NCBI RefSeq assembly: GCF_009708035.1
Contig: NZ_WMBQ01000001.1
Span: 2,051,501 to 2,115,500 of the forward strand
Reading direction: 5' to 3'
DNA length: 64,000 nucleotides
From: Hyphomicrobium album
GTDB taxonomy: Bacteria > Pseudomonadota > Alphaproteobacteria > Rhizobiales > Hyphomicrobiaceae
This document shows, one piece after another, positions 21,926 to 27,057 of this stretch. The notes under the pieces are model-generated. The model saw only the letters and a program-made list of their open reading frames with translations. It had not been told where the DNA came from and did no database searches. Position 1 is the stretch's first letter; every line of letters starts with the position of its first letter. The position numbers were made by a program, and so were the translations under genes.

Positions 21926-23368
21926 GTGCTGTTTCGCGTCACAAATAAGCGGCCTGCTTTACGGCCAAAAGAGCTCGCTGGGCCGGTAATCCCGCGGGAG
22001 CCGGAATTCCTCCGTGCTCGCGTTGACGATTACCACGTTCGCCGGAAAGTCGACCTTTGGCAGGGGTGCCATCCCCTGCAGGGCCGGACACCGCGTCCTG
22101 GCGACATCAAGGTCCGCAGCAACGACTATCTTTGTCTTGCCGACCATCCCCACGTCATCGAAAGCGAGATCGCCGCGCTGCGCACCGGCGGTCATGGCGA
22201 TGCCGTCTCCCGCGTTTGGGTGCATCACGAGCGCGATGTCATTTGCGAGTTCGAGCAGCGCGTCGCCCAGCTGATGCGCGCCGAGGACTGCGTCGTTTGC
22301 GCGTCGGGCTATACGGCGAACGTCGGCCTCATCCAGTCGTTCGCGACCCGGGGCGCCCCCGTCTATCTCGACATGAAGGCGCACATCTCGCTGCACGAAG
22401 GCGTGGTGAGCGCCGGCGCGCGGCCCGTATTGTTCCGCCACAACGACCCGCAATCGCTCGATCGCATGCTGGCGCAGAACGGCCCCGGCCTCGTCTGCGT
22501 CGATGCCCTGTACAGCACCGACGGAGACCTCGCACCGCTCAAGGAGTTCGTCGAGGTTTGCGAGCGCCACGGCGGCGCCCTCGTGGTCGACGAAACGCAC
22601 TCTTTCGGTGCCCAGGGACCCGGCGGAGCCGGTCTCGTCGTCGCTGCTGGCCTCGCTGAGCGCGTTCACTTCCGGACGGTAGGACTTTCCAAGGCCGTCG
22701 CGAGCCGTGGCGGCCTCGTGGTGTCATCGCGCCGCAACATCGAATACTTCCGCTACGAGTCCCTGCCGACGATCTTCAGCACCTCCGTGATGCAGCACGA
22801 GGTTGCTGGATTCGATGCCGTGCTCGACATCTTGCAGCGCGAGGATTGGCGCCGCGACAAGCTGCATGCCAACCACACGTACCTCCGCCAGGGGCTCGAC
22901 GCGCTCGGCTACAACGTGGCGGCGTCGAAGACGCAGATCATCGCCCTCGAGCCGGGCGACATCCGCCAGACGACCGTCTTGCGTGATGCGCTCGAGAAGC
23001 GCGGAGTCTTCGGCGCGATCTTCTTTCCGCCGGCGACACCGGACAAGCGGTGCATCATCCGCTTCACGGTGAACTGCGGACTGAGCCGGCACGAGCTCGA
23101 TCGCATCATCGAGGTTTGCGGCGAGATCCGCGAGGAAGTGGGGATGGCCGAGTGGCGCTCCACGAAGCGCAAGTTCGCGGGCGGTGCGGGCACGGTACAA
23201 GCGACCAAGCAGCGCGAGAAAGCGGCAGCCTCTCGCCTAGGCCGCAGCCGCGTTCTCAATAGCTGGCTGAACAACCGGAAGCTCAATCGTGAAGGAGGTT
23301 CCGACGTTGACCTTGGAACGACACGAGATCGTGCCTCCGGCCCCCTCGACAATCATCCGGCAAAATGA
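21926..23368 (+). CDS. cqsA: CqsA/LqsA-type alpha-hydroxyketone autoinducer synthase
   Basis: PLP-dependent alpha-oxoamine synthase fold, 480 residues. CqsA/LqsA enzymes condense an acyl-CoA with an amino acid or SAM to make CAI-1/LAI-1 type signals. Blocks align with Vibrio cholerae CqsA rather than with ALAS or KBL: SNDYLCLADHP (65-75), CASGYTANVGLIQSF (125-139), KAHISLHEG (151-159), CVDALYSTDGDLAPLKEFV (191-209), VVDETHSFGAQGPGGAGL (220-237), Schiff-base Lys256 in VGLSKAVASRGG and LPTIFSTSVMQHEVAGF (280-296). GTG start with GGGGGT upstream. The core ends near residue 405; the ~75-residue tail is unusual and its last 44 codons overlap the convergent kinase gene. Other oxoamine synthases remain a less likely alternative. 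Confidence 0.88.
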   Translation: MLFRVTNKRPALRPKELAGPVIPREPEFLRARVDDYHVRRKVDLWQGCHPLQGRTPRPGDIKVRSNDYLCLADHPHVIESEIAALRTGGHGDAVSRVWVHHERDVICEFEQRVAQLMRAEDCVVCASGYTANVGLIQSFATRGAPVYLDMKAHISLHEGVVSAGARPVLFRHNDPQSLDRMLAQNGPGLVCVDALYSTDGDLAPLKEFVEVCERHGGALVVDETHSFGAQGPGGAGLVVAAGLAERVHFRTVGLSKAVASRGGLVVSSRRNIEYFRYESLPTIFSTSVMQHEVAGFDAVLDILQREDWRRDKLHANHTYLRQGLDALGYNVAASKTQIIALEPGDIRQTTVLRDALEKRGVFGAIFFPPATPDKRCIIRFTVNCGLSRHELDRIIEVCGEIREEVGMAEWRSTKRKFAGGAGTVQATKQREKAAASRLGRSRVLNSWLNNRKLNREGGSDVDLGTTRDRASGPLDNHPAK

Positions 23369-24592
23369 CAAGCCGAGACCGGTGCCGACACCCGGACGCT
23401 GGGCCGACACGAAGGGGATGAACACGTAGTTCAAGATTTCCGGCGGAATGCCGTCGCCCGTATCGGAGATGACGATCGTGTTGGCGTGGCCGCCGCGCCG
23501 AAGCTCGATCGACAGATGATTCTCGTCGCCGTCGCGCGCCTCGATTGCCCGCAGGCCGTTCTTCAACAGGTTGAACAGCACGTGGGTCATCAGAAGATCC
23601 GACCCGCGGAACTCGAAGTCCTCCTCGAGACTGGTGCGCACGAGGTCGCGCTGGTTGGGTTTGAAGCTGTACCGCTCCAGCGCCAGCGAGACGATCTTGC
23701 TCATGCTGTGCAGTTCGGCGGTCGGGGCGCCGCGGTGATGCTGCGCCACGTTGGTGAGCAATAGATCGATGACTGAGTTTGCCGCGGTGATGTGCTGACG
23801 CACGCGCCGGTGCGAGGCGGTCAGCTTGTCGCGAATTGGCGAGTCCGGCAGGCGTGCCAAGAGACGCTCGCAGCCGTCTGCCTCGAACCGAATACCGGTG
23901 AGCGGAGTACGGCATTCGTGAGCAACCTGGCTCGCCAGCGACGCCGCCGCCTTGAGCTTCTCCCGCGCGATGAGGTTGTCGCTGTAGGCAAGGCCGAGGA
24001 AGCCGGTCAGTGCGAAGATCAGGATCGGCAACGTCATCCAGTAGCCCGCCGGGATTGGGGCGCCCCCGGTCACCATGAGGTAGGCAACGAGCGCCGCGAC
24101 GGAACCCAAGATCAGCACGACGATCGCGTTGACGAGGTCATAGAGCAGGACGACGTAAATCAATGCCGCGAGTGTCGACATCTCCCACGCGTTGCTGTCG
24201 TTCAGGAGCAGCATCAGCGTGAAGAAGAACGGCAGGCAGTAGAGGAAGGTGAAGTACGAGAACGGCACGGTGTAGGCCCGCCAGGCGTACGGCCACCACT
24301 GGGTCAGGGCCAAGGCGAGGCAGAGGCCAGTGCCAATGCCACGCAGCCACATGCTTTCGTACGGCTGAGGTAGGACGTACGTCCACACCAAGTAGAAAAC
24401 CGGAAAGCCGATGACGCCGATGATCGCCGCGGCTTGAATCTTGCGCTGAGCGTGCGCGTGATACTCGACGTATCGGCGGGAAAGATCGTGAATCAGACGC
24501 GTCAAAATGGACGGCCGCGGCTTCGGCTCGTTAAGGCCGCCGATGCCTCTCGCACCAGACTTTAGCGAAAGTCGTTCTGACAATTGAAACAT
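23237..24592 (-). CDS. cqsS: CqsS/LqsS-type membrane sensor histidine kinase without receiver
   Basis: 451-residue kinase with six predicted membrane helices (~52-205), then HisKA and HATPase domains. The sensor matches V. cholerae CqsS: GFPVFYLVWTYVLPQPYES (62-80), YCLPFFFTLMLLLND (118-132) and WEMS (136-139); the last matches CqsS W104-x-x-S107, known to contact CAI-1. The phospho-accepting His is H225 (QVAHECRTPL), with N box NLLKNGL (341-347) and G boxes DTGDGIPPE (377-385) and GTGLGLSF (403-410). Unlike Vibrio CqsS there is no C-terminal receiver, as in Legionella LqsS. It diverges from the receiver gene at 24691 and converges on cqsA with a 132-bp overlap. Confidence 0.9.
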   Translation of the reverse strand: MFQLSERLSLKSGARGIGGLNEPKPRPSILTRLIHDLSRRYVEYHAHAQRKIQAAAIIGVIGFPVFYLVWTYVLPQPYESMWLRGIGTGLCLALALTQWWPYAWRAYTVPFSYFTFLYCLPFFFTLMLLLNDSNAWEMSTLAALIYVVLLYDLVNAIVVLILGSVAALVAYLMVTGGAPIPAGYWMTLPILIFALTGFLGLAYSDNLIAREKLKAAASLASQVAHECRTPLTGIRFEADGCERLLARLPDSPIRDKLTASHRRVRQHITAANSVIDLLLTNVAQHHRGAPTAELHSMSKIVSLALERYSFKPNQRDLVRTSLEEDFEFRGSDLLMTHVLFNLLKNGLRAIEARDGDENHLSIELRRGGHANTIVISDTGDGIPPEILNYVFIPFVSAQRPGVGTGLGLSFCRMIVEGAGGTISCRSKVNVGTSFTIELPVVQPAIENAAAA

Positions 24593-24611
24593 TTAAACTT
24601 TTAACCGTCGC

Positions 24612-24629
24612 CGTACCGGATCCGATACG
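24612..24629. promoter_or_regulatory. Candidate operator in the divergent cqsS / response-regulator promoter
   Basis: CGTACCGGATCCGATACG is an 18-bp near-perfect dyad centred on GGATCC. It lies in the 98-base gap between the divergent starts of the sensor kinase (24592) and the receiver protein (24691). A single regulator bound here could control both genes. The prediction rests on symmetry and position only. Confidence 0.35.
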
Positions 24630-24690
24630 AAACCGTAGTACGAAAGGTCCTTACGGAAAGTGCATTCACCCGGCTAGGGCTTAAGCTTCC

Positions 24691-25662
24691 ATGACGCCGT
24701 TCTACCACCCGACTTCGATCCTCGTTCTCGATGATGATCCGCTTTTTCTAGAAAGCCTGGATTTTCAGTTTAGCGAGGAAGTGTCGTGTCAAACGTTTAC
24801 TCGTCCCGACGCCGCCCTCGAGCATCTGCGCGCCCAGTCGACGCAGCATCCGAATTTTGCCCGTTACTTCAAAGACGTCTCGGACATGGACCTGGGATCT
24901 GAGACGCGATTCGGCGACCGCCTTCTGCGCCTACAGCTTTCGGAGTTGCGCTCGGTGATCGAGGACAGAGCGCGCCAGCAGCGCGTCTCGGTCGCCGTCG
25001 TCGATTATGACATGCCGAAAATGACGGGCGTCGAGTTCTGCCGCGCCATTCGCGACTTGCCGGTGAGAACCATCCTGCTGACCGGCAAGGCCGGTCTGGA
25101 GACCGCGATCTCGGCCTTCAACGAGGGCGTCATCGATTGCTTCCTGCAGAAGCAGGACTCTGGCGTCACGGTTGCCCTACGCCGCGAGATCAAACGCCTC
25201 CAGGAGGAGTACTTCGCCGACATCTCGGCGCCCATCGCCAGCGCGTTGGCCCTGCAGCGGCCTTGCTTCTTCTCCGACCCGAGCTTCGTCGCGCTCCTCA
25301 AGGAGGTCATGGAGAAAAACAGTATCGTCGAGCACTACGTATGCGCGGGGCCACCCGGCGTGATGATGCGCGACGCTGACGGCAACGAGTCGTTCCTCTT
25401 GGTCTCGGACGGCGAGCGGGTGAACAACCAGTGCGAGGCAGCGGAGACCCAGCAGGCGCCCGCCGACATGGTTCAGCTGCTGCGCACACGCAAGGCACAG
25501 GCTTGGTTTCCGACGCAAGAGGGCCTCTACCATCCGGATTACGAAAAGAACTGGGCCCGCTTCATCTGGCCGGCACAGTTGCTGCCGGGATCGGGGGCAT
25601 GGAGCTACAGCGTCATCCGCCACGGCCAGACGGTTGAAGAACCGCTGAGTCGCACGGCCTGA
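24691..25662 (+). CDS. Atypical response regulator paired with the CqsS-like kinase
   Basis: 323 residues. The receiver has the acidic pocket LVLDDDP (11-17), phospho-acceptor Asp105 in VVDYDMPKMTG, conserved Thr in ILLTGKAG and Lys in CFLQKQD. Between the first helix and the phosphorylated strand it carries an insertion of roughly 40-50 residues (~45-98), so the receiver is longer than usual. The C-terminal ~160 residues show no recognisable helix-turn-helix or enzymatic motif and end in PGSGAWSYSVIRHGQTVEE. Legionella LqsR is likewise an atypical receiver protein beside LqsS. The likely job is to receive phosphate from the kinase encoded divergently; the output is unknown. Confidence 0.8.
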   Translation: MTPFYHPTSILVLDDDPLFLESLDFQFSEEVSCQTFTRPDAALEHLRAQSTQHPNFARYFKDVSDMDLGSETRFGDRLLRLQLSELRSVIEDRARQQRVSVAVVDYDMPKMTGVEFCRAIRDLPVRTILLTGKAGLETAISAFNEGVIDCFLQKQDSGVTVALRREIKRLQEEYFADISAPIASALALQRPCFFSDPSFVALLKEVMEKNSIVEHYVCAGPPGVMMRDADGNESFLLVSDGERVNNQCEAAETQQAPADMVQLLRTRKAQAWFPTQEGLYHPDYEKNWARFIWPAQLLPGSGAWSYSVIRHGQTVEEPLSRTA

Positions 25663-25779: not shown

Positions 25780-27057
25780 ATGCTTGCACGGTCGGCATGG
25801 CGAGGCGGTATTGCTGCCGCGCTGACGGGTTTTGTGTTGAGCGCACAACCGGCCTGTGCCCTGGAAGGATACTTCCAGCACGCCTATGGCGCGCGCCACA
25901 AAGGACTTGCCGGTGCCGGTGCCGCCGACGGCCGCGACGCCACGATCGCCATCATCAACCCGGCTGGCCTCGTACACGCTGGCAACGAGCTCGACCTCGC
26001 CTTCGGCCTGTTCAGCCCTACCCGCGAGATGGAAGGATCGGGCACTCTCGGCCTGACACCCATCGGCAAGTACGAGAGCAACACGCTCGAGTTCTTCATC
26101 CCGAATCTCGCGGCCGCCTATCGCGTCACGGGCAACCCCTATGTCGACGTTGTCGGCGTCGCCGTGTGGGGCAACGGCGCGGGCACGAACTACCGCAACT
26201 TCGATCGTACGGCGTCTCCGTGCGCCAATGGCGGCACGGGCATGTATTGCGGCGGCGCTGCGGGCGTCGACCTGCAGCAGACGTTTCTCACGCTGTCGCT
26301 GGCCAAGAACATCACACCGGACTTCGCCGTCGGCATCGGCCCGACACTCGCCCGCCAGCAATTCCGCGCGAAAGGCTTGTCGTTGTTCGCCCCCGTGTCG
26401 AACAGCATCGACGCGGAATGGGGTTATGGCATCAGCGGTGGCGTCGACTGGCACATCGCCCGACATCTGCGCTTCGGCGCCGCGATCGCGTCACGCACCT
26501 ACATGGGCTCGTTCGAGAAGTACGCAGATCTCCTCGCCGACCACGGCGATTGCGATGTGCCCGCCTACGGACAAGCCGGCATCGCCTACGACGTGCTGGC
26601 CAATCTGACGCTCATGCTCGACTATCAACACATCGCCTATGGTTCGGTACCGTGCGTCGCCAATCCGGCGACCAACATGCTGACCGCCCCCTTCGGCGCC
26701 GCCAACGGACCGGCTTTCGGGTGGCGCGACGTCAATGCGGTGAAGCTCGGTGCGGAATGGTGGTATCGCCCCGACGTGGCGCTGCGCGCTGGCTATGCCT
26801 ACAACACACCCCTGTTCGGCTCACGCGATGTGCAGCTCGACATTCTCGCACCTGCGACAACGCAGCATCACCTGACGGTGGGCGGCGAGTGGCGCTATGA
26901 CAAGGACTGGTCGTTCGAGTTCGCGGGGATGTATGCGCCGGAAGCCACTGTCATCGGCGTCGAGATCATTCCGGGCCCCGGGCACGGCGTCGCGGTCTCG
27001 TCAGAACAGTACGAGATTACACTCGGCGTTAAGTACTTCTACGACGATGCGCAATGA
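25780..27057 (+). CDS. FadL/OmpP1 family outer-membrane channel
   Basis: 425 residues with a signal peptide ending near ALTGFVLSAQPACA. The FadL-type N-terminal hatch region reads GLAGAGAADGRDATIAIINPAGL, including the NPA motif. A long beta-rich region follows, with alternating aromatic strands and a terminal aromatic strand (VKYFYDDAQ). FadL proteins move hydrophobic compounds such as long-chain fatty acids across the outer membrane. GGGGGAAC precedes the ATG. Its place directly behind the Cqs/Lqs-like genes suggests, but does not prove, a link to a lipophilic signal or precursor. Confidence 0.85.
   Translation: MLARSAWRGGIAAALTGFVLSAQPACALEGYFQHAYGARHKGLAGAGAADGRDATIAIINPAGLVHAGNELDLAFGLFSPTREMEGSGTLGLTPIGKYESNTLEFFIPNLAAAYRVTGNPYVDVVGVAVWGNGAGTNYRNFDRTASPCANGGTGMYCGGAAGVDLQQTFLTLSLAKNITPDFAVGIGPTLARQQFRAKGLSLFAPVSNSIDAEWGYGISGGVDWHIARHLRFGAAIASRTYMGSFEKYADLLADHGDCDVPAYGQAGIAYDVLANLTLMLDYQHIAYGSVPCVANPATNMLTAPFGAANGPAFGWRDVNAVKLGAEWWYRPDVALRAGYAYNTPLFGSRDVQLDILAPATTQHHLTVGGEWRYDKDWSFEFAGMYAPEATVIGVEIIPGPGHGVAVSSEQYEITLGVKYFYDDAQ

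What the first reader, a model, noticed from the sequence alone, without database searches (positions are those of the whole stretch)
21926..25662. A minimal Cqs/Lqs-type alpha-hydroxyketone quorum-sensing module in an alphaproteobacterium
Three adjacent genes form synthase (cqsA/lqsA-like), membrane kinase (cqsS/lqsS-like) and a stand-alone receiver protein. The synthase aligns block by block with V. cholerae CqsA from recall (SNDYL-LA-HP, SG-NANVGL, GPG-VVD-YST-G-APL, VDE-HS-G--GP-GAGL). The kinase sensor has the distinctive GFPV-Y-VW...PQ-YE and LPFFF...LND blocks of CqsS. The receiver is separate and diverges from the kinase. Cqs/Lqs systems are best known from Vibrio and Legionella; a version in a rhizobial-type chromosome with this gene order looks little described.
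Basis: partly seen in the sequence, partly recalled or inferred. Interest (0 to 1): 0.9.

Follow-up and report, generated by a model that had tools for sequence, protein, structure and literature searches.

The report
Lqs-type hydroxyketone signalling genes in Hyphomicrobium
Three neighbouring genes in a soil and water bacterium very likely make, sense and respond to a hydroxyketone chemical signal of the kind known from Legionella and Vibrio; the kind is known, but this branch is uncharacterised, and close relatives without the signal-making gene have worn-down sensors, which makes the link testable.

Summary
At 21926-25662 a Hyphomicrobium-type chromosome carries genes for an alpha-hydroxyketone (AHK) synthase, a membrane histidine kinase with a CqsS-type sensor and no receiver, and a response regulator. 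The synthase passes the NCBIfam AHK cut-off (452.6 v 428 bits) and sits in an AHK clade (44 rows, 100/100) apart from 12 other family members. The kinase keeps the CqsS ligand residues W104, S107 and F162, invariant in 32 of 32 kinases aligned. The third gene is a full LqsR-type regulator, so the module is Lqs-type, not Cqs-type. It is rare (8 of 297 genomes of the order, own included) but recurs as a unit in alphaproteobacteria. As a kind it is known: a 2013 tree held R. vannielii and a 2023 paper reports lqs clusters in Alphaproteobacteria. New here: two same-genus genomes lack the synthase at the same locus, keep kinase and regulator, and have lost 8 of 16 conserved sensor columns but only 1 of 25 kinase-core columns. 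Signal and effects are untested.

The parts
21926..23368 (+). AHK autoinducer synthase (LqsA/CqsA family, PLP enzyme). Core about residues 23-415; K256 aligns with a Lys of 3hqt that I recall as the PLP lysine. The last 43 or more residues are probably unselected read-through over the kinase gene.
   Evidence: NF005526 452.6 bits over cut-off 428; 3hqt E 2.9e-76, aligned 23-400; AHK clade 100/100; overlap test.
23237..24592 (-). Membrane sensor histidine kinase (LqsS/CqsS-type sensor, HisKA and HATPase_c, no receiver). H225 is the phospho-acceptor by alignment; W136, S139, F193 equal CqsS W104, S107, F162.
   Evidence: Pfam, where HisKA is below its cut-off at 23.9 v 26.9 bits; sensor match to Vibrio kinases; residue mapping over 32 kinases.
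24691..25662 (+). LqsR-type response regulator: receiver with D105 plus LqsR-type C-terminal part.
   Evidence: Pfam Response_reg; 6sy9 E 1.5e-32 over residues 4-310, D105 aligned to chain residue 128; tree.
24593..24690 (.). 98-bp divergent control region between kinase and regulator, partly conserved in six Hyphomicrobium-genus genomes with or without synthase; holds the near-palindrome GTACCGGATCCGATAC at 24613.
   Evidence: Alignment of 6 genomes; the 20-base pattern occurs once in the genome with up to 3 mismatches, and its reversed control also once; once in the window, 0.02 expected.
23237..23368 (.). 132-bp 3'-3' overlap of synthase and kinase frames, same length in four Hyphomicrobium genomes.

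Best explanation
This is an Lqs-type alpha-hydroxyketone quorum-sensing module of an alphaproteobacterial branch. The PLP-dependent synthase joins an acyl-CoA to an amino-acid-derived donor (SAM in Vibrio, by analogy) to give a lipophilic 3-hydroxy- or 3-amino-4-ketone. The ketone crosses membranes and binds in the membrane bundle of the kinase next door, touching the conserved Trp/Ser/Phe set. Binding shifts the kinase between kinase and phosphatase states, so phosphate flow from H225 to D105 of the LqsR-type regulator depends on cell density. Shown here: family membership of all three proteins, conservation of the ligand-contact and phosphotransfer residues, conserved clustering, shared tree structure, and wear of the sensor motif in two relatives that lack the synthase. 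Inferred: the product, its detection, the direction of the switch, the pairing H225 to D105 and the output, which cannot be named. The residues that set head and tail preference in Vibrio CqsS differ here (C170/F175 is L201; F166 is G197; F160 is L191), so a ligand with a different tail is likely.
For: Synthase over the AHK cut-off and in the AHK clade. Kinase carries the CqsS ligand residues (roles of these residues from PMC3376566 and PMC3285556, passages). Regulator is LqsR-like over nearly its whole length. All three genes lie together in 8 of 8 synthase genomes of the order sample, own included, and in 15 of 17 close loci of the named-genome scan, the other 2 being cut by contig ends. Alpha rows are one clade in the kinase tree (18 rows, 100/98), the module's synthases one clade (20 rows, 99/92), and the regulator tree has the same smaller groups. 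No other match in the genome covers the sensor (16 others start at residue 204 or later) or the whole regulator. Two same-genus genomes without synthase keep kinase and regulator at the same flanked locus but have lost S139, F193 and most of PQxYE; 24 of 25 conserved kinase-core columns are kept against 8 of 16 sensor columns.
Against: No chemistry or expression data. The synthase scores only just above the NCBIfam cut-off and the alpha clade is a deep branch, so its product may differ from known AHKs. 4 of 8 genomes of the genus lack the synthase, so the trait is dispensable. Hydropathy did not resolve six membrane helices. The wear of the sensor rests on one lineage (two genomes whose kinases are 91% identical), and sensors generally change faster than kinase cores. 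LqsR-type regulators also occur without a synthase nearby. [quoted passage not shown]
Confidence: 0.86

Rival explanations
1. The synthase is a metabolic alpha-oxoamine synthase (ALAS, BioF, KBL or SPT type) beside an unrelated two-component pair.
For: Same PLP enzyme family; the genome holds six other matches of the wider family; BioF scores 248 bits on it.
Against: BioF 248 v cut-off 426, ALAS 164 v 339, KBL 200 v 460, SPT 235 v 500, AHK 453 v 428; separate clade 100/100; the genome already has two ALAS copies over the cut-off; sensor and regulator are AHK-type.
Confidence: 0.03
2. The module is a Cqs-type system like that of Vibrio, with the regulator an add-on.
For: Synthase and kinase genes converge as in the two named Vibrio records.
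Against: In 8 of 8 Vibrio-type loci (2 named, 6 grouped with them by tree) the kinase has 681-729 aa and no LqsR match was found nearby; the window kinase has 451 aa and no receiver and an LqsR-type partner; Vibrio-type synthases and kinases are clades of their own.
Confidence: 0.04
3. The synthase makes an AHK-like lipid that serves another purpose (membrane or antimicrobial), and the kinase senses membrane state rather than the product.
For: Five alphaproteobacterial synthase loci showed neither kinase nor regulator in the stretches fetched (L154, L155, L157, L158, L108).
Against: Those synthases lie on the other side of the AHK tree; here synthase, sensor and regulator travel together, and the sensor motif is worn where the synthase is missing.
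Confidence: 0.07

Closest known systems
Legionella Lqs system (LqsA, LqsS, LqsR; LAI-1)
   Same: Same three families; kinase and LqsR-type regulator as separate genes.
   Different: In Legionella hdeD lies between convergent lqsS and lqsR (PMC3376566, passage); here kinase and regulator diverge from a 98-bp gap. Legionella has a second sensor, LqsT (PMC10653808, passage); no second such sensor was found in this genome. No named Legionella LqsA or LqsS was compared.
Janthinobacterium Jqs system (JqsA, JqsS, JqsR)
   Same: Synthase next to kinase next to regulator; deletion of jqsA cuts violacein by 83% and cqsA or lqsA partly restores it (PMC3566124, passages).
   Different: Betaproteobacterial; a phenotype is known there and none here.
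Vibrio CqsA/CqsS (CAI-1)
   Same: Synthase 34-39% and sensor 28-31% identical to two named Vibrio records, same convergent layout, same ligand residues.
   Different: The Vibrio kinase carries a receiver of its own and has no LqsR next to it (PMC3310172, passage).
PhcX/LqsR family of Ralstonia and lqs clusters of Proteobacteria
   Same: PMC10653808 (passages) reports LqsR orthologues in 310 of 6,937 genomes, 16 of them Alphaproteobacteria, and lqs clusters in Alpha-, Beta- and Gammaproteobacteria.
   Different: PhcX stands with the phc genes where the lqs synthase and kinases are missing; the passages I saw characterise no alphaproteobacterial cluster.
R. vannielii synthase in the JqsA tree
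   Same: Probably the same synthase group as the Rhodomicrobium rows here (name in the legend, PMC3566124; my tree, holds other Rhodomicrobium rows, not this one).
   Different: A leaf in a tree in the passages I saw.

Membership tests
Lqs-type AHK module | AHK synthase over the curated family cut-off | tested here: met
   NF005526 452.6 v 428 bits; the only one of 7 matches in the genome that passes.
Lqs-type AHK module | Synthase groups with CqsA/LqsA and not with ALAS, KBL, BioF, SPT | tested here: met
   44-row clade, 100/100, against 12 rows: 2 ALAS and 4 BioF over their cut-offs, 6 unassigned. KBL and SPT tested by profile and PDB scores only.
Lqs-type AHK module | CqsS/LqsS-type sensor with ligand residues | tested here: met
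   W136, S139, F193 in columns invariant in 32 of 32 kinases; sensor match to Vibrio kinases E about 1.5e-18. No named Legionella LqsS was compared.
Lqs-type AHK module | Six transmembrane helices | tested here: inconclusive
Lqs-type AHK module | Kinase without receiver, separate LqsR regulator | tested here: met
   Pfam; 6sy9 over residues 4-310. That 6sy9 is Legionella LqsR is recalled; the table says only 'Response regulator'.
Lqs-type AHK module | Synthase, kinase and regulator clustered | tested here: met
   8 of 8 synthase genomes of the order sample, window included; 15 of 17 close loci.
Lqs-type AHK module | Product is an AHK, sensed by the kinase, relayed to the regulator | not testable with these tools
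   Needs chemistry and biochemistry.
Cqs-type (Vibrio) | Hybrid kinase with its own receiver | tested here: not met
   HisKA and HATPase_c only, 451 aa.
Cqs-type (Vibrio) | LuxU/LuxO phosphorelay | not tested
   Not searched.

The most novel reading that the evidence does not exclude
Alphaproteobacteria hold an old, separate branch of AHK signalling with its own ketone; in Hyphomicrobium the synthase was lost in one lineage and its receptor then lost the ligand site while keeping kinase and regulator, so the genus contains both senders and natural signal-deaf or retuned relatives at one and the same locus.
Probability: 0.45. Interest if true: 0.6.

Novelty: new member of a known kind. Interest (0 to 1): 0.42.

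Why it matters
In the papers I saw, AHK signalling has a tested function in Vibrio, Legionella and a few betaproteobacteria; the 2012 review called it apparently restricted to aquatic gammaproteobacteria, though it lists homologues elsewhere (PMC3376566, passages). A harmless genus with senders and synthase-less relatives would give a safe model for what the signal does and which sensor residues bind it. It also bears on an idea in that review, that lqsS and lqsR came from a cqsS-like gene split by hdeD. Here kinase and regulator genes are separate and adjacent, with no room for a gene between them, in 16 of 18 full alphaproteobacterial loci. Vibrio receivers score 6-13 bits against an LqsR profile, no better than two unrelated receivers of this genome (10 and 21 bits). 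That weakens the split idea but does not exclude it.

Tried and rejected
Metabolic enzyme reading rejected on scores and tree. Cqs-type filing rejected because the kinase has no receiver. 'Stand-alone receiver' rejected. A selected synthase tail over the kinase gene rejected: variation follows the kinase frame. FadL-like neighbour as a signal importer: not kept, no match at E 1e-10 in the 19 other alpha loci shown. A genome-wide operator for the intergenic motif: one site, and the reversed control also gave one. AHL synthase PF00765 in the genome: no hit, but no control genome rang either, so absence is not shown. LuxS: no hit, with 5 of 14 controls ringing. Sigma-70 promoter scan: none found, 0.9 expected; terminator-like sites 4 against 3.8 expected. 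My first residue mapping used a wrong offset and was redone. A strict regular expression for the W..S block was too narrow (2 of 37) and is not used; PQxYE in that call was found in 36 of 37 synthase-linked kinases (L150 reads VQPYE). The count of kept sensor columns in the two synthase-less genomes (8 of 16 in each) comes from adding them to a fixed alignment; the full alignment shows PQxYE slightly more worn.

Rows dropped. Synthase tree: L015, L017, L018, L020, L021 (same contigs as named loci), the own-genome copy L006 with a stop, and 55 of the 62 distant loci. Of the matches of the phylum search (17, own included) I fetched and used 15 regions, leaving out a fragment; of the class search (10, own included) 5 regions. 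The 32-kinase alignment leaves out 5 near-copies of the 37 kinases at hand (L016, L044, L140, L141, L144). L033, cut by its contig end, was left out of the kinase tree and has no regulator.
Full report
Check of the observation. The three frames are present at the stated places: synthase 21926-23368 (+), kinase 23237-24592 (-), regulator 24691-25662 (+). The genome (3.9 Mb, 3 contigs) belongs with Hyphomicrobium: the nearest named loci are three Hyphomicrobium records at 76-83% synthase identity, and 4 of 8 genomes of its genus, own included, carry the gene.

Synthase. NCBIfam's AHK autoinducer synthase model scores 452.6 bits against a cut-off of 428; BioF, ALAS, glycine C-acetyltransferase and serine palmitoyltransferase models all stay far below theirs. 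The best solved relatives are entries named CAI-1 autoinducer synthase (E about 3e-76; that they are V. cholerae CqsA is recalled), then serine palmitoyltransferase (E 4e-44). Of 7 matches in the genome only this one passes the cut-off; two others are ALAS over theirs. In a tree of 56 rows, 44 AHK synthases form one side of a branch with support 100/100 against 12 others: 2 ALAS and 4 BioF over their cut-offs and 6 not assigned. No verified KBL or SPT row was in that tree. Twenty alphaproteobacterial synthases of this module type form a clade (99/92), apart from the Vibrio type, the other rows of the phylum and six alphaproteobacterial synthases of another kind.

Kinase. Pfam finds HATPase_c and, a little under its cut-off, HisKA, and nothing else. 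The sensor part matches the kinases beside cqsA in two named Vibrio records. Over 32 kinases (16 alpha, 6 Vibrio type, 10 other) the columns of V. cholerae W104, S107 and F162 are invariant, and in the window are W136, S139 and F193; H194 is H225 (one of the 32, L156, lacks the His). Mapping went through V. campbellii numbering (plus 5, from the C170/F175 pair in PMC3285556, passages), and the expected letters were found at all seven positions checked. Positions that set head and tail preference in Vibrio (F160, F166, C170; PMC3376566, passages) are L191, G197 and L201 here, which suggests another tail length; this is inference. Of 17 matches to the kinase in the genome, the 16 others begin at residue 204 or later, that is, in the kinase part.

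Regulator. The best solved match is 6sy9 over residues 4-310, which I recall as Legionella LqsR; its aligned Asp sits at chain residue 128, which fits D108 of LqsR (PMC3376566, passage) if the chain has a 20-residue tag. It is thus a whole LqsR-type protein. The 2020 structure paper was not held; PMC10653808 (passages) says that the output part resembles a diguanylate cyclase with a degenerate motif and that no activity was detected.

Spread. In the order 8 of 297 genomes have the synthase at E 1e-90 (7 over the cut-off), in the class 8 of 385, in the phylum 17 of 398, the own genome counted in each. All 8 of the order have kinase and regulator beside it. Of 79 loci from the named-genome scan, 17 are close (48-83%); 15 of these have all three genes and 2 are cut by contig ends. 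Among 18 distinct full loci, window included, 9 have the window's layout (Hyphomicrobium, Rhodomicrobium and its unnamed kin, an uncultured Hyphomicrobiaceae), 7 have a kinase-regulator pair divergent from the synthase (Magnetovibrio, Niveispirillum, Oleisolibacter, Aerophototrophica, two Kordiimonas and one unplaced), 2 another order. In 8 Vibrio-type loci the kinase is long (681-729 aa) and no LqsR was found nearby. Trees of kinase and regulator show the same smaller alphaproteobacterial groups as the synthase tree; the kinase tree has the alpha rows as one clade (100/98), the regulator tree needs two changes because a long-branched plasmid row falls among them.

Synthase-less relatives. Six of 8 genomes of the genus have the regulator, 4 have the synthase. 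In the other two, G1002 (L172) and G090 (L173), kinase and regulator sit between the same flanks (MutS and malic enzyme on one side; PAS-GGDEF-EAL and GNAT on the other), and the PHB depolymerase, GST and synthase genes that lie between malic enzyme and kinase in the window are missing together, as one deletion would leave. They are orthologues by place and tree (quick trees). These four flanking proteins are 71-84% identical to the window's, kinase 48% and regulator 51-52%; the hybrid kinase farther out is 56% in L172, so the module is not alone in changing fast. Their kinase keeps 24 of 25 conserved core columns but 8 of 16 conserved sensor columns; S139 is V, F193 is A, PQxYE is gone, W136 stays (Fisher p 0.001 for L172). 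Even the most distant synthase-linked kinases keep nearly all of what these close ones lost. The cautions: this is one lineage, and synthase-linked kinases were found partly by sensor similarity. Five genomes of the family outside the genus have an LqsR-type regulator and no CqsS-type kinase in the stretch fetched.

Overlap. The 132-bp overlap of synthase and kinase frames has the same length in four Hyphomicrobium genomes; variation follows the kinase frame, so the synthase tail is probably not selected.

Novelty. The 2013 Janthinobacterium paper lists R. vannielii ATCC 17100 in its synthase tree (PMC3566124, legend passage), and a 2023 paper reports 16 Alphaproteobacteria among 310 genomes with LqsR orthologues and lqs clusters in Alpha-, Beta- and Gammaproteobacteria (PMC10653808, passages). 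The listings of my searches showed no title on a functional study in an alphaproteobacterium: LqsA with LqsR and Alphaproteobacteria (2 papers), alpha-hydroxyketone with Rhizobiales (none), Hyphomicrobium with autoinducer synthase, Rhodomicrobium, quorum sensing, LqsA (12 of 65 listed), alpha-hydroxyketone with Alphaproteobacteria, CqsA with alphaproteobacter. Most subscription papers are not in that library. So this is a new member of a known kind. The synthase loss with sensor wear did not appear in what I saw; I made no search aimed at it.

Noticed in passing
window 25780-27057: FadL/TodX-type outer membrane protein gene sits between the regulator and a PAS-GGDEF-EAL gene here but has no match in the loci of the three other synthase-bearing Hyphomicrobium genomes.
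   Followed up: partly
window 24593-24690: Conserved non-coding stretch with a near-palindrome and repeated TACGAAA-like words between kinase and regulator, kept also in synthase-less relatives; single site in the genome.
   Followed up: partly
L172 (5530-7987) and L173 (6962-9419): Same-genus genomes with kinase and regulator but no synthase at the same locus; sensor motif worn.
   Followed up: yes
L156 7188-8552: A synthase-linked kinase whose H box reads SKELRPPL, lacking the phospho-acceptor His, and with no LqsR match in the stretch fetched.
   Followed up: no
L154 (G575 contig 86): Two AHK synthase matches about 3.6 kb apart, one inside an open frame of about 1200 residues, with no kinase or regulator match in the stretch fetched.
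   Followed up: no
L174, L175: LqsR-type regulator divergent from a 463-aa protein with a methyltransferase domain; no CqsS-type kinase found in the stretch.
   Followed up: no
L177, L178: Distant LqsR-type regulators beside a gene with a LuxR-type DNA-binding domain (in L178 with a below-cut-off Autoind_bind match) and a GntR-type gene.
   Followed up: no
G000 C2:985601 and C1:2191906: Two 5-aminolevulinate synthase genes, both over the family cut-off.
   Followed up: no
L108, Tistrella mobilis plasmid pTM3: AHK synthase over the family cut-off on a plasmid typed as conjugative, with no kinase or regulator match within about 5 kb.
   Followed up: no
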